From the NCBI GenBank assembly GCA_946625715.1, contig CAMOTK010000040.1, positions 1 to 11,667 of the forward strand: a stretch of DNA of 11,667 nt. The letters are read 5' to 3'. Shown here in pieces: positions 25 to 5,393 of the stretch. The position numbers and the translations under genes are program-made. The stretch is from an uncultured Prevotella sp. GTDB taxonomy: Bacteria; Bacteroidota; Bacteroidia; Bacteroidales; Bacteroidaceae. Below the pieces are notes generated by a model. That model was not told the origin of the DNA, did no database searches, and worked only from the letters and a program-made list of their open reading frames with translations. Each line of letters starts with the position of its first letter. The stretch's first letter is position 1.

Positions 25-485
25 TCAGACGACTTCCAATTCTGGCAGTATTATCGGTTCTTCGTGGTGCTCGTTATGAAGAAACATGCAATAGTAAATG
101 GGAAGATAGGTTACGCCTTTCTTCTTGAAAATCTCCCGTCCATTGGAGAAAACGACTGCACGTTTAATTCCGTAGTCTGGCGTTTCAAGGAAACTGGTGA
201 GCGCGCTGTGCTCTGTATAGTCCTTTCCGGATTTTATCTCCAGGGGAAGGACGGTCAGATTGGCATAGTCATCTACAAGAAAATCTATTTCGCCTTTTTT
301 CTTATTGTCATAATAATGTAGTTTAAACCCATGCGCGGCAAGTTCCTGTGCCACAACTGACTCATACACCGTACCAAGGTTGATGCTCTTGATGTCTTGC
401 CCTTCTTATTTTCTATATTCTTATACACGATGCGCTTCTTTTTGTTTTCGAGATTGCTCGGAATAAGGTCGTATATTTTGCGAAT
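25..485 (-). pseudogene. Remnant of an AAA+ ATPase with DUF4143 C-terminal domain (frameshifted, internally deleted)
   Basis: Two fragments of one protein family lie in different frames. The upstream fragment (393-485) encodes a stretch with IYDLIPSNLENKKK and ends at NKKGKT, which resembles the middle of DUF4143-type ATPases. The downstream fragment (25-405) begins EGQDIKSINLGTVYESVVAQEL and runs to a TGA at 25. It has the PD-(D/E)XK-like features of the DUF4143 C-terminus: GEIDFL near its start, then LPLEIKSGKDY, and it finishes with the usual YLPIYYCMFL. The whole N-terminal P-loop ATPase part is absent, and so is the segment between the two fragments, which I judge from memory of the family to be several tens of residues. 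The fragments meet around 393-405. The only start available to the downstream piece is a GTG at 369. I read this as a dead gene. A surviving short nuclease-like protein of 114 residues is possible but unlikely. Intact members have no well-defined role and are often linked to accessory DNA. Confidence 0.75.
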
Positions 486-626: not shown

Positions 627-3600
627 TTATTTCTCCCCCGATTTCGTCAATACAATGTTTGCCAGGCATACGGCGTACTCTGTTGTTGAATCCTGAGGTT
701 TCCAGGCCAACGTGAAGCTCACGGTGGCGCGGGTGACCGTATAGCCTTTGTCGGTCCAGACCTTCAGCTTTTCTTTTCCTGAAGCTGAGAGGGCTGCTAC
801 GTTTACTCCTTGATTGTTGAGCAGAAGGCCGTCGCTGTAGAGCAGGCTGTCGCCACTTCTGAGGCGAAGTACTATCTCCTTGCGCCCTTTGTAGAAGTCG
901 AGCCAGACATCGTGCATGCTTAGTGGTATGGATATTGACGTGTGCTCGGTGGGAGGATTGGGTATGAGGTAGAGGTTCTTCTTGGCCCGAGTGAGGCCTA
1001 CGTAATAGGTGCGCATGTCGTTCTTTGACGAGCTTTGTGGCGAAGCCGAGCGGATGTCTCTTTCGTCGGGAACGGGCGCGAGCAGGTAGACGTTGTCGAA
1101 CTCGCGACCTTTGGCCTTATGGATGGTGCTCACGAACACCGAATGGCTGTCGGCGGCTATGAAGTCTTCGATGTCAGATTCGTAGATGTACTCTTGCAAG
1201 TCGCTGCGATAGTAGTTCCGATGCGTTATCTCGAAGTCGGCAAAGAAGTGCTTCATGATGCTCAGGCATGTGCTTGTGGCGTAGGTGTCAAGTGTGCGCT
1301 GCTTGGCTTTCGTCCATGTTTCGTGTGAAATGTAAACCTCATCGGTTCGTCCGAGCTGTTTCAGGAAATAACGGACTTCGGCGAGGTTGCCGAAGCGGAA
1401 ACCATCTGCCGACTGGGCTACTGTGGCATGGATGCCGCGCTGCTCCAGTTCGTAGGTCACCTGCATGGCTTCTTCGTTTGTGCGTGTAAGTATGGCGGTG
1501 GTGCCATGCGTGTCGATTTCTGCGTTCTGAAGCGACTTCAGGGTCACTACCTTGCCTGCTTCACCCGTAGCAGAATGGATGGGTGCCTGCTTCATGCGGC
1601 CGGGTATGCGCTTGACGAAACGGTTGGCGCAGTCGACCACTGCTTTCGATGAGCGATAGTTGTCGGTCATCTCGTAGAGCTTGGCCCCTTCCTGGCTGAC
1701 GAGCGACTGCATATACTTAGAGTCGGAACCGCGGAAGGCGTAGATGTTTTGGTCGTCGTCGCCTACGGCTATGACGCGCATGTCCTCGTTTTGGCGCATT
1801 AAGGCCTGCACCAATCGGAAATCGTCCGGCCCCATGTCCTGAGCTTCGTCGATGACGAGCACGCTCTTGGCTATCTTTGATGGCTCCACTTCGCTCCGTT
1901 CAATCATCTCTGCCGCCATGCGCACCACATCTTTTGCCTCGTCTAAACTGCCTTGTTTGCCGATGAGGTCGAAGCTGTAGGAGTGGAAGGTCTTGATTTC
2001 GATATAGTGTGCGGCATCGTTTACTAAGTCGATAAGCCGTTTCTTGAACTCCGTGGCAGCTGCGCGCGAGAAGGTGAGCATGAGCAGTTGCTCGTGCTTC
2101 ACGTCTTCGAGCAGAAGGAGCGATGCCAGCTTGTGAACCAGAACGCGCGTTTTTCCACTTCCCGGTCCTGCTGCCACCACGATGTATTTCGACTGTTTGT
2201 CGTCGATGATTTCGCTTTGCCGATGAGAGAGCCCGCCAAAGAGTTGGTTGTATTTGGTCGGTGTGATGTTTTGGTCTATTTGCGCCCGCCGTTCCTCTTT
2301 GAAATACAGATTGATGAACTTGCGGAAGTCCATTGTGAAGTAGTCGTTGACAAAGCGGCGTGCGGCGTCGTAGTCGCGTACCATCAGGTTGGCATATTCG
2401 CCCACGATGTGTATTTGCCTGATGCGCTGCTTGTAGAACTCGTCCAACAGCCGATATTGCTCCTTGGTGTAGCGTGTGCGTCGGTCGACCACACGGCCTA
2501 TCTGCATGGTATTGTAGATGACGATGAAGCCGCCTTCGATTTTCATCAGCTCTGTCTTGGTGAGATAGAGTAGGGCTTCCTCAACGTCTGCTATCGTTGG
2601 CTTCGCTGCAGAGTTGGCAAAGATGATGTTCTGTCGGCTGGCGATATACTGTTGCAGCAGTTCGACGATAGAGAAGCTGACCAGCGTCAGTTCCTTGCTG
2701 GCGTCGCGCTGGGCAGCAAGCGTTTCGACGATGAAGCGGCAGATGTCGGTGCGCCGCTCGAAACGTGCCATCGTTACGTCTTGCGAAGATTGCAGGCGCA
2801 CGCTTACGCTATCGCTGGCGCTATGCTCCCGTTTGTGGATGTAGCCTTTCACAGACAGGAAGTGGAGCAGCATGCGCAGTCGTTTGACGTTTGAGAAGGT
2901 GAGGCCAGCCTTGAGCGCTTCCTCATTGAGCTCTTTGTAATACAATCTTTGGGCAATGCCGATGTTCGATTCGTCGACTCCGATTTTTTCATCCTTCAGA
3001 TGTTGTAAAAGGAACTGTTCTAATCTCAGTAAGGTATCCAGATGGCGTAGCGAGGTGCTTTTGGCTATCCATGCCTGCATGTCGCGCGTGTCGGCCAACA
3101 GTCCGTCTTGTCGCATGAGGTTGATGTTTCTGATGACCGTGGCTTTGCTCATACCGAGTATGTCTGCCAAATAGTCTACGCGGCTCTCCGCTTCTGCTCC
3201 GCGGCCGTCTGCAGTGGCACGGGCGCTGATGAGCGACTTGATGATGCGTGCCGCTTCTTCGCGCGACTGTTCGTCGAAGAGTGTAGACTGCGTCAGCTTG
3301 TGGCGTGCTTCGTCCATGCTCTTCACGGCTATGCCTGTTGCAAAGATGTGAGGAGAATTGCTGCCGCGACGAATGAAGCCGGCGTCTTCCAGCGCAGCAA
3401 TGGCTGCCTTGACGCGTGTCTCTATATCGTCGACCTCATCGCCCCATCCGGCTTGTCGGGCTATCTCCAGTGGCGAACAGCTCACCTGTTCGCGCTTGGC
3501 CGTCAACGCCTTGATGGCTTTCCATACTTGCTGGATTTCGCTGATGCTCAACTTGGTCTGGTTGAGCAGAATGAAGTGCTTGTCGAGGTCGCTGTCGGTA

Positions 3601-5393
3601 TAGAGCACGAAGCAGTCGGCCTGCATCTGTGGGTCTCGCCCTGCGCGGCCGGCTTCTTGCACGTAGTTTTCCAGCGAGTCGCTAATGTTATAGTGCACCA
3701 CCAGTCCCACGTCTTTCTTGTCGACGCCCATGCCAAAAGCCGAAGTGGCAACAATCACTTGCGCTTCACCGCTCATAAAGGCATTTTGGTTCTTCACTTT
3801 CTCGGCAGCATCCATCTTCCCGTTGAAGGGCAAGGCACGGATGCCGTCCCTGACAAGATGCTCTGCAAGCTCTTTGGTGCGCTTGGTGCGCGAGACGTAG
3901 ACGATTGTGGGGCTGTTGTGCCCCAAGATTAGGGAGCGCAGCAGATTGTACTTCTCGTCGGCAGTCTCGGCATGGAGTACAGAATAGCGCAGGTTCTTTC
4001 GCTCGGCATTGGCGGCAAACACCTTTAGCTCCACGCCCAGCTTCGACCTGAAATAGTCGCAGATGTCTGTGACGACCTTCTGCTTGGCCGTCGCAGTAAA
4101 GCACGACACGGCAATGGGCTGGTCTGTCTGTTTCTTCTCTTGAAGTGCTCGGATGAAATCGCCTATATAGAGATAGTCTACGCGGAAATCGTGTCCCCAG
4201 GCAGAGAAGCAGTGGGCTTCGTCGATGACAAAGCGCGCGACAGTCCGATTGAGCAGGAGCCGCTCAATGGTCTTGCTCCGCAACATTTCCGGAGCAATGT
4301 AGAGCAGGTTGGCTGTGCCTTCGGCCACTTGCTGGATGGCACTGGCACGCTCTATGGGGTCGAGCAGGCCGTTGATGGTCACGGCTTCGCTGATGCCACG
4401 TGCGGCAAGATTGTCTACCTGGTCTTTCATCAGCGACTGAAGCGGTGAGATGACAACCGTCAGGCCATGGGTGTTTCTGCCGGCCATCAGCGCCGGCAAC
4501 TGGAACGTGAGGCTCTTGCCGCCGCCAGTGGGGAAAATCGTCAACAGCGACTCGCCGCGAATGGCTGTCTCTACGGCTTGCTGCTGCATAGGCTCGCCGT
4601 CGAATGTGCGAAACGCCTCATAGCCGAAGAACTCCTTCAGACCGCTATGTGCATCTAAGCGTTGGTGACAATAGGCGCAGTCGCCGCACGAGGTGTTGCA
4701 CAAAAGGTTCATCACATTGGCCACCTGTGGATAGTTGCGTATTACCCATGCAGGCGTAATCGAGAAGACATCGTCGGCACCGATTACAGCGAGACAATAG
4801 GCTAATTCGGTTGGGTGTTGGCGGGCCAATGCGTTGAAATCGGCATGACTGCACACTTTGCCCTCATATTCTTTCAGAATCAGCCGCGACATGTCGGGCT
4901 GAGACCGTAGCAGTCTGCTTAAAAGTGATGGCTGGGTGGCCGATGTGTAGCCTACGTGTTTGAAGAAACCCTCAAACTCTTGCGTCTGATGAAGAAGCTG
5001 ATAGTAGATTTCCTGCCTGTCGGCCGATAGCCCTTTCCATGCCGCAATCTCGTCGCTGAGCAGTTCATGTGCCTTCATCGAATCGTTTACGGGATTGTTC
5101 AGCTCGTCAACCTGCAGTTTGTCGTCTTTCACCAGGCGATGATAGGGACGCTTGGGGAACAGTAAAGGCGATAAGGGCAACGTATCAATAATCGTGGGAT
5201 TGCCTCTCAGGGCTGTATATTTCAGGTCATGATGAATAATATTGTGTCCACAAATAGTGTCGCAGTCAGACACAAAAGCGTCGAAGTCGGCTTTTGAATG
5301 CGTGTGCAGCACGCTGCCATCGTCTCTCACTGCACCAAAGTCTACTACTTTTTTTGTTCGCAGACTCACTTCTGTGTCAATGAATGCTATCAT
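627..5393 (-). CDS. Giant fused helicase: exonuclease-like domain + RecQ-type SF2 helicase + UvrD-type SF1 helicase (1588 aa)
   Basis: Probably unwinds or processes DNA in repair or recombination in the cytoplasm; the family type is sure, the exact role is not. Residues 1-115 resemble a DnaQ-like exonuclease: D6/E8 in IDTE, GHNIIHHDL with D56, and a motif III D104 with Asn99 where His is expected. A Cys cluster (C232, C236, C239, C242) follows. Residues 250-610 form a RecQ core: Walker A PTGGGKS (288-294), DEAHC (391-395) with the RecQ aromatic loop WGHDFR, FTATA (432-436), and QEAGRAGRD (579-587). Residues 610-1045 include winged-helix-like stretches. Residues 1045-1480 form a UvrD/Rep core: AAGPGSGKT (1074-1082), IDEAQD (1181-1186), GDDDQNIYAFRG (1211-1222), a TIHKAKG box near 1423 and GLTRAKKN near 1466. 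Residues 1485-1588 match nothing I know. The ATG at 5393 is chosen because an in-frame TTG at 5432 overlaps the promoter, and because the exonuclease motif begins directly at this Met. Usual RecQ and UvrD proteins are 600-750 aa each. Confidence 0.93.
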   Translation of the reverse strand: MIAFIDTEVSLRTKKVVDFGAVRDDGSVLHTHSKADFDAFVSDCDTICGHNIIHHDLKYTALRGNPTIIDTLPLSPLLFPKRPYHRLVKDDKLQVDELNNPVNDSMKAHELLSDEIAAWKGLSADRQEIYYQLLHQTQEFEGFFKHVGYTSATQPSLLSRLLRSQPDMSRLILKEYEGKVCSHADFNALARQHPTELAYCLAVIGADDVFSITPAWVIRNYPQVANVMNLLCNTSCGDCAYCHQRLDAHSGLKEFFGYEAFRTFDGEPMQQQAVETAIRGESLLTIFPTGGGKSLTFQLPALMAGRNTHGLTVVISPLQSLMKDQVDNLAARGISEAVTINGLLDPIERASAIQQVAEGTANLLYIAPEMLRSKTIERLLLNRTVARFVIDEAHCFSAWGHDFRVDYLYIGDFIRALQEKKQTDQPIAVSCFTATAKQKVVTDICDYFRSKLGVELKVFAANAERKNLRYSVLHAETADEKYNLLRSLILGHNSPTIVYVSRTKRTKELAEHLVRDGIRALPFNGKMDAAEKVKNQNAFMSGEAQVIVATSAFGMGVDKKDVGLVVHYNISDSLENYVQEAGRAGRDPQMQADCFVLYTDSDLDKHFILLNQTKLSISEIQQVWKAIKALTAKREQVSCSPLEIARQAGWGDEVDDIETRVKAAIAALEDAGFIRRGSNSPHIFATGIAVKSMDEARHKLTQSTLFDEQSREEAARIIKSLISARATADGRGAEAESRVDYLADILGMSKATVIRNINLMRQDGLLADTRDMQAWIAKSTSLRHLDTLLRLEQFLLQHLKDEKIGVDESNIGIAQRLYYKELNEEALKAGLTFSNVKRLRMLLHFLSVKGYIHKREHSASDSVSVRLQSSQDVTMARFERRTDICRFIVETLAAQRDASKELTLVSFSIVELLQQYIASRQNIIFANSAAKPTIADVEEALLYLTKTELMKIEGGFIVIYNTMQIGRVVDRRTRYTKEQYRLLDEFYKQRIRQIHIVGEYANLMVRDYDAARRFVNDYFTMDFRKFINLYFKEERRAQIDQNITPTKYNQLFGGLSHRQSEIIDDKQSKYIVVAAGPGSGKTRVLVHKLASLLLLEDVKHEQLLMLTFSRAAATEFKKRLIDLVNDAAHYIEIKTFHSYSFDLIGKQGSLDEAKDVVRMAAEMIERSEVEPSKIAKSVLVIDEAQDMGPDDFRLVQALMRQNEDMRVIAVGDDDQNIYAFRGSDSKYMQSLVSQEGAKLYEMTDNYRSSKAVVDCANRFVKRIPGRMKQAPIHSATGEAGKVVTLKSLQNAEIDTHGTTAILTRTNEEAMQVTYELEQRGIHATVAQSADGFRFGNLAEVRYFLKQLGRTDEVYISHETWTKAKQRTLDTYATSTCLSIMKHFFADFEITHRNYYRSDLQEYIYESDIEDFIAADSHSVFVSTIHKAKGREFDNVYLLAPVPDERDIRSASPQSSSKNDMRTYYVGLTRAKKNLYLIPNPPTEHTSISIPLSMHDVWLDFYKGRKEIVLRLRSGDSLLYSDGLLLNNQGVNVAALSASGKEKLKVWTDKGYTVTRATVSFTLAWKPQDSTTEYAVCLANIVLTKSGEK

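What the first reader, a model, noticed from the sequence alone, without database searches (positions are those of the whole stretch)
627..5393. One polypeptide joining a complete RecQ (SF2) and a complete UvrD-type (SF1) helicase
All core motifs of both families are intact in one uninterrupted 1588-codon frame, with an exonuclease-like domain in front and an unknown domain at the end. Both motors are usually 3'-5' helicases; fused, they could track the two strands or act in turn on one substrate, comparable in idea to the dual motors of RecBCD/AddAB but built from different families. The architecture hints at a self-contained DNA end- or fork-processing machine. I cannot tell from here whether it has been described biochemically.
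Basis: partly seen in the sequence, partly recalled or inferred. Interest (0 to 1): 0.75.

Follow-up and report, generated by a model that had tools for sequence, protein, structure and literature searches.

The report
Mobile exonuclease-RecQ-UvrD fusion helicase
One large bacterial protein carries a DNA-trimming-type domain and two complete but different DNA-unwinding motors; its gene moves between genomes and sometimes sits beside restriction-type genes, so it may be a one-protein defence machine, which remains to be tested.

Summary
Window 5393..627 (-) is one intact 1588-codon frame: DEDD exonuclease-like domain, four-cysteine module, RecQ core, winged-helix-like linker, UvrD/Rep-type motor, small C-terminal beta domain. 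It is not a private fusion. In 311 aligned proteins (window included; picked for similarity and length) both Walker A lysines and the acidic residues of both motif II boxes are invariant, the exonuclease quartet is kept wherever aligned, and four cysteines are present in 309. Relatives occur in Bacteroidota, Pseudomonadota, Campylobacterota and cyanobacteria, some on plasmids. In the genus it is patchy (8 of 35 other genomes) and absent from this site in 20 of 20 genomes checked, 7 of which carry it elsewhere. A SauUSI-like restriction enzyme lies beside it in 5 of 51 named loci, and PADLOC families are commoner among neighbours than controls. The RecBCD/AddAB parallel is weak: both motors belong to 3'-5' families, and an AddB-type gene is present in all 11 fusion-carrying relatives. 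Most likely: a mobile one-protein nuclease-helicase of the defence pool (about 0.55); repair or plasmid upkeep remains open. My literature searches showed no description.

The parts
627..5393 (-). whole fusion gene, 1588 codons plus stop
   Evidence: full-length homologues
4998..5393 (-). residues 1-132: DEDD exonuclease-like domain (D6, E8, D56, D104; Asn99 where DEDDh enzymes have His; invariant His85)
   Evidence: conservation; strand-helix order b-b-b-a-b-a-b with D104 on a long helix in the model (residues 85-97 are below pLDDT 50); profile match to RNase_T/DnaQ-type proteins over motifs I and II; no Pfam hit for the window's own domain
4659..4886 (-). residues 170-245: four-cysteine module (C181, C236, C239, C242), probable metal site, in front of the RecQ core
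   Evidence: four Cys in 309 of 311 proteins; of the other two one keeps one and one none; no Pfam hit for residues 165-262
3576..4652 (-). residues 248-606: RecQ (SF2) core, Walker A K293, DEAH 391-394, CFSxWGxDFR loop, motif VI 579-586
2256..3575 (-). residues 607-1046: linker, read as winged-helix-like repeats and a helical bundle
   Evidence: secondary structure of the models; HTH hits below Pfam cut-off at one place, residues about 733-770; not searched as a fold by itself
936..2255 (-). residues 1047-1486: UvrD/Rep-type (SF1A) motor with shortened accessory regions, Walker A K1081, DExQD 1182-1186
630..935 (-). residues 1487-1588: small beta-rich C-terminal domain, function unknown, conserved G1514
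   Evidence: model; no Pfam hit; conserved column; not searched as a fold by itself

Best explanation
A horizontally moving, single-protein nuclease-helicase that processes branched or replicating DNA of invading elements. Proposed steps: the winged-helix-like linker and the RecQ core engage a junction or gap; the RecQ and UvrD motors, both expected to run 3'-5', load on different single-stranded arms (or in series on one strand) and pull the junction open or strip bound proteins; the exonuclease-like domain trims the exposed 3' end so that the intermediate cannot be repaired or circularised. Shown here: the architecture, the conservation of all three active sites and the four Cys, the patchy and relocating distribution, carriage on some plasmids, and restriction-type neighbours at some loci. 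Inferred: the defence role, the polarity, the order of steps, the nuclease activity, the metal.
For: Both Walker A lysines and motif II acids invariant in 311 of 311; D6 and E8 in 307 with 4 gaps, D56 and D104 in 311 of 311; four Cys in 309 of 311. Patchy: 8 of 35 other genomes of the genus (one, G249, matched only over residues 3-1283) and 3 of 24 of the order; 11 of 246 other genomes of the phylum (a lower bound, since two candidates were scored per genome). Relocation: of 20 same-genus genomes, 20 keep HU beside RNase G and 3 keep the SecA-ABC-HU-RNase G block; none has the fusion in the stretch fetched, while 7 of them carry it on another contig or far away. Plasmids: 7 records hold at least 80% of the query in one place, some of them near-duplicates. 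Neighbours: a SauUSI-like DUF3427 gene in 5 of 51 named loci and in G275; in L042, L045, L072 and L087 (G275) it starts 5-20 bases behind the fusion on the same strand, although only 5 DUF3427 matches were found in 60 genomes, one of the 5 beside a fusion. PADLOC at E<=1e-20: 90 families among 120 neighbour proteins against 27 among 120 control proteins; most-hit family 5 members against 1.
Against: No phage or plasmid assay. No partner gene is constant: 46 of 51 named loci lack the SauUSI-like gene within the flanks held, and in the window the gene stands alone between RNase G and a DUF4143 fragment. Among the 25 best of 71 PADLOC families shown for the protein none covers both motors. The PADLOC comparison counts families, not proteins; RecQ neighbours supply about 16 of the 90, and cases and controls come from different genomes. 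The DEDDh His is replaced by Asn, so the nuclease may be altered or inactive. All the domains also occur in repair enzymes.
Confidence: 0.55

Rival explanations
1. An accessory replication-fork or recombination-repair factor: the two motors and the exonuclease restart stalled forks or trim D-loops, as RecQ, Rep/UvrD and ExoI do separately.
For: All recognised domains occur in repair enzymes. NUDIX (MutT-like) and Vsr proteins, which can also be read as repair genes, are among the recurring neighbours.
Against: The own genome also encodes two stand-alone RecQ-type frames and a UvrD-type frame. The gene is absent from 27 of 35 other genomes of the genus as far as matched and changes place, unlike a housekeeping repair gene.
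Confidence: 0.25
2. A maintenance or anti-restriction helper of plasmids and other mobile elements: it processes the element's own replication or transfer intermediates.
For: Plasmid copies in several phyla, in Aliarcobacter beside parA/parB and replication genes; one viral-contig copy.
Against: The window copy lies beside SecA, HU and RNase G, and one named copy (L063) is on a record titled chromosome; the other contigs were not typed. No phage record holds 80% of the query in one place. Of nine recurring-neighbour proteins scanned with Pfam none was a transfer protein.
Confidence: 0.15
3. A dual-motor end-resection machine that replaces AddAB/RecBCD.
For: Exonuclease-like domain plus two motors in one chain; the UvrD part also matches AdnB, AddA and RecB folds.
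Against: Same expected polarity of both motors; AddB-type gene in all 11 fusion-carrying relatives.
Confidence: 0.05

Closest known systems
RecQ family helicases (TIGR00614; solved RecQ, RECQL5, BLM cores)
   Same: whole core with aromatic-rich loop; passes the NCBIfam cut-off; top structural matches
   Different: no RecQ_Zn_bind, RQC or HRDC hit after the core; a four-Cys module lies before it; fused to an SF1 motor
UvrD/PcrA/Rep (SF1A)
   Different: a span of 439 residues against 620, so accessory regions are shortened; follows a RecQ motor
Gabija (GajA nuclease + GajB UvrD-like helicase; passages of PMC12407980 seen)
   Same: nuclease plus UvrD-like motor used in defence; GajB among the structural matches
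   Different: single chain with an added RecQ motor and a DEDD-type nuclease domain; no GajA-like gene among the window's neighbours
Nhi, nuclease-helicase immunity (named in passages of PMC10732053; its single-chain make-up is recalled)
   Same: nuclease and helicase used for phage defence
   Different: homology not tested here
ExoDinG (passages of PMC11981726 seen)
   Same: N-terminal DEDD exonuclease fused to an SF2 helicase
   Different: DinG/XPD-type motor instead of RecQ, canonical DEDDh, no SF1 motor mentioned in the passages seen
DpdF (RecQ-like helicase of the Dpd system)
   Same: best PADLOC matches of the RecQ part; one model also covers residues 210-252 in front of the core
   Different: below the NCBIfam DpdF cut-off (213 against 550 bits); the matched stretches end before the SF1 motor

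Membership tests
RecQ family | RecQ-type motor core above curated cut-off | tested here: met
   TIGR00614 279.5 bits against 219.8; motifs conserved
RecQ family | RecQ_Zn_bind, RQC and HRDC after the core (typical of bacterial RecQ, not of all members; recalled) | tested here: not met
   no such Pfam hit at E<=0.1, while the stand-alone RecQ beside the fusion in L057 gives all three
UvrD/Rep SF1A | SF1A motor motifs and fold | tested here: met
UvrD/Rep SF1A | full-length UvrD, PcrA or Rep equivalog | tested here: not met
   NCBIfam scores 76-128 bits against cut-offs of 911 or more
DEDDh exonuclease | four acidic ligands D/E/D/D | tested here: met
   D6 and E8 in 307 of 311 with 4 gaps, D56 and D104 in 311 of 311
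DEDDh exonuclease | His five residues before the last Asp (H-x4-D; recalled) | tested here: not met
   Asn in 307 and Ser in 4 of 311
DEDDh exonuclease | DnaQ-like fold | tested here: inconclusive
   strand-helix order fits and a profile matches motifs I and II, but the domain was not folded or searched alone and Pfam gives no hit for it
DEDDh exonuclease | 3'-5' nuclease activity | not testable with these tools
   needs purified protein
RecBCD/AddAB | stands in for the end-resection complex of the genome | tested here: not met
   AddB-type PF12705 gene in all 11 fusion-carrying relatives
Gabija | GajA partner gene next to the helicase | tested here: not met
   window neighbours are RNase G, HU, an ABC ATPase and a DUF4143 fragment (Pfam) and SecA (by eye)
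Dpd system | DpdF at its curated cut-off | tested here: not met
   213 against 550 bits
anti-phage defence | protects cells from phage | not testable with these tools
   needs a plaque assay

The most novel reading that the evidence does not exclude
An undescribed one-protein immune machine in which two motors of different superfamilies but the same polarity work on the two arms of one branched intermediate, coupled to a non-canonical 'DEDD-Asn' exonuclease and a metal-binding module, and which pairs modularly with SauUSI-type restriction enzymes.
Probability: 0.3. Interest if true: 0.8.

Novelty: new variant of a known kind. Interest (0 to 1): 0.6.

Why it matters
The database names that I saw for such proteins (the few named rows) say 'RecQ family ATP-dependent DNA helicase', 'ATP-dependent DNA helicase RecQ' or 'helicase', which hides an SF1 motor and a nuclease-like domain. 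If the defence reading is right, this adds a one-protein system found in several phyla to the nuclease-helicase class, and a model for how two motors of the same polarity share one substrate. If it is wrong, it is still a test case for fused SF1 and SF2 motors with both ATPase sites conserved.

Tried and rejected
RecBCD/AddAB replacement: rejected. Membership of Gabija or Dpd: rejected. Sequencing artefact: rejected (same architecture in many relatives). Constant operon partner: none found; 82 immediate neighbours had no homologue among the genes of the loci compared (which did not print the total). Exonuclease alone: Pfam gave nothing for the window, RNase_T at E 0.026 for one of four sequences; of 16 sequences two matched DNA_pol_B_exo1 (best E 0.017) and five unrelated families matched one each at E 0.045-0.76. 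PDB by sequence: for the window alone one chance-level hit at E 0.81; by profile eight hits, the best two CLIP-associating proteins (E 0.02 and 0.074), which I take as chance, then T7 DNA polymerase's exonuclease part at E 0.17. Profile comparison: RNase_T/DnaQ-type set P 1e-5, 82% probability, motifs I and II only; pol-A-exo-type set P 0.016. For that, 5 of 30 and 19 of 30 fetched sequences over a length limit were dropped; one of the 25 kept, an 87-aa frame, was probably the wrong frame; no unrelated profile was run as a control. Structural searches were filled by the motors, so the exonuclease, the four-Cys module, the linker and the C-terminal domain were not searched alone. Zinc against iron-sulphur was not resolved. 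Literature; no listing showed this fusion. I saw listings with starts of abstracts, and passages of PMC5512222, PMC9122126, PMC12407980, PMC12458937, PMC10732053, PMC3874153 and PMC11981726; no paper was read whole.

Full report
Observation. Window 5393..627 (-) is one open frame of 1588 codons. Pfam finds DEAD and Helicase_C (268-586) and UvrD-helicase and UvrD_C (1058-1477); nothing for the first about 240 residues or the last about 110. Among NCBIfam models it passes the cut-off of the RecQ family; the UvrD, PcrA and Rep models stay far below theirs (the best 25 of 40 shown).

Active sites. One search aligned 311 proteins: the window, 72 of 78 other locus proteins and 238 of 239 database hits (those of 1500 aa or more kept; the hits are the best 120 of each of two searches, so biased to close relatives). 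RecQ K293, D391, E392, H394 and UvrD K1081, D1182, E1183, Q1185, D1186 are invariant. Exonuclease D56 and D104 are invariant; D6 and E8 are present in 307 with 4 gaps. The DEDDh His position is Asn in 307 and Ser in 4; His85 is invariant. The four Cys (181, 236, 239, 242) are present in 309; L095 keeps one and L101 none. Near-complete retention, with loss of three or four at once in the exceptions, suggests one metal site. The exonuclease assignment rests on the quartet, the model's strand-helix order and a profile match to RNase_T/DnaQ-type proteins over motifs I and II (P 1e-5); Pfam does not recognise the window's domain.

Distribution. The Thiothrix plasmid version finds 119 of its 120 listed proteins at 98% coverage or more. 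Named rows include Prevotella, Betaproteobacteria, Competibacter and Syntrophales. Seven plasmid records hold at least 80% of the query in one place, some of them near-duplicates; no phage record does; one viral contig carries an 80% copy. In genomes of at least 90% completeness it occurs in 8 of 35 others of the same genus and 3 of 24 of the same order, and in 11 of 246 other phylum genomes (a lower bound).

Mobility. In 20 same-genus genomes fetched around RNase G (of 35 with it), HU is beside it in 20 and the SecA-ABC-HU-RNase G block is kept in 3. None has the fusion in the fetched stretch (one 164-residue, 29% match in L140 is not it), yet 7 of the 20 (G257, G266, G270, G274, G275, G277, G281) carry it on another contig or, in G281, far away. 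Of the neighbours up to two genes away, those of RNase G have a homologue beside the gene in another locus in 31 of 60 cases. For the fusion it is 59 of 167 in all 51 loci, and 11 of 66, 18 of 59 and 8 of 67 in three random 20-locus samples (the two sets come from different genomes).

Neighbourhood. In the 51 named loci the flanks are mostly unshared. Recurring neighbours, one or two representatives of each tested, are a PLD-helicase-DUF3427 protein (PADLOC mREase_IV, best E 1.5e-199), a NUDIX protein (PDC-S07), Vsr, a PD-(D/E)XK protein (PDC-S26), a Fic protein (PDC-S72), a Schlafen/AlbA_2 protein without a PADLOC hit, and stand-alone RecQ. The DUF3427-type gene is in 5 of 51 named loci (L037, L042, L045, L057, L072) and in G275 (L087). 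It begins 5-20 bases behind the fusion on the same strand in L042, L045, L072 and L087; it is second behind in L057 and in front in L037 (L037, L042 and L072 assigned by sequence clustering). It is rare in general: 5 matches in 4 of 60 genomes, one beside a fusion. SauUSI itself is a one-chain restriction enzyme for methylated DNA (passages of PMC3874153). PADLOC scans of 120 of 174 neighbours hit 90 families, and of 120 of 256 control proteins 27; about 16 of the 90 come from RecQ neighbours. Of eight annotated plasmid regions, one has a type I restriction system and one CRISPR genes within 12 kb; the others show toxin-antitoxin, partition, transposon or unrelated genes.

Interpretation. Invariant ATPase sites in both motors suggest that neither is a dead passenger. 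RecQ and UvrD/Rep are 3'-5' families (knowledge, not tested), so RecBCD-like tracking of both strands from one end is not expected; work on two arms of a fork, or in series on one strand, is. All 11 fusion-carrying relatives keep an AddB-type gene and the own genome also encodes separate RecQ (two) and UvrD-type frames, so the fusion is accessory. Patchiness, relocation, plasmid carriage and restriction-type neighbours favour a defence or mobile-element role; nothing here shows it directly.

Comparison with the known. Gabija targets DNA ends when RecBCD is kept away (passages of PMC12407980); ExoDinG is a DEDDh exonuclease fused to another SF2 motor (passages of PMC11981726); AbpAB, Nhi and Hna are nuclease-helicase defences activated by phage SSB (passages of PMC10732053). 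None has both a RecQ and a UvrD motor in the passages I saw. No listing described the fusion, but that library lacks most subscription papers.

Noticed in passing
window 25-369 (-): C-terminal third of a DUF4143-type ATPase (profile positions 109-160 of 160) without its N-terminal part, directly behind the fusion: probably a remnant.
   Followed up: partly
L057 12707-19681; L037 711-10368; L045 6569-10351: Same-strand runs behind or around the fusion: stand-alone RecQ, SauUSI-like DUF3427 enzyme, NUDIX protein, Vsr, in varying order and number.
   Followed up: yes
L057, L058, L066, L085: A second, stand-alone RecQ-family gene (34-38% to the RecQ part) lies immediately behind the fusion.
   Followed up: partly
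L054, L058, L066, L070: The fusion gene is interrupted or shortened in these metagenome assemblies; real damage and assembly error cannot be told apart here.
   Followed up: no
L103: A 105-kb IMG/VR contig carries an 80% identical copy; whether it is a real virus or a misassigned piece was not checked.
   Followed up: no
L095, L101: The Aliarcobacter and Calothrix plasmid versions have lost three or all four of the otherwise near-invariant cysteines but keep both motors.
   Followed up: partly
L094, L102: The Bacteroides finegoldii and Phocaeicola massiliensis plasmid copies share a run of flanking genes, so they are one element in two hosts rather than independent cases.
   Followed up: partly
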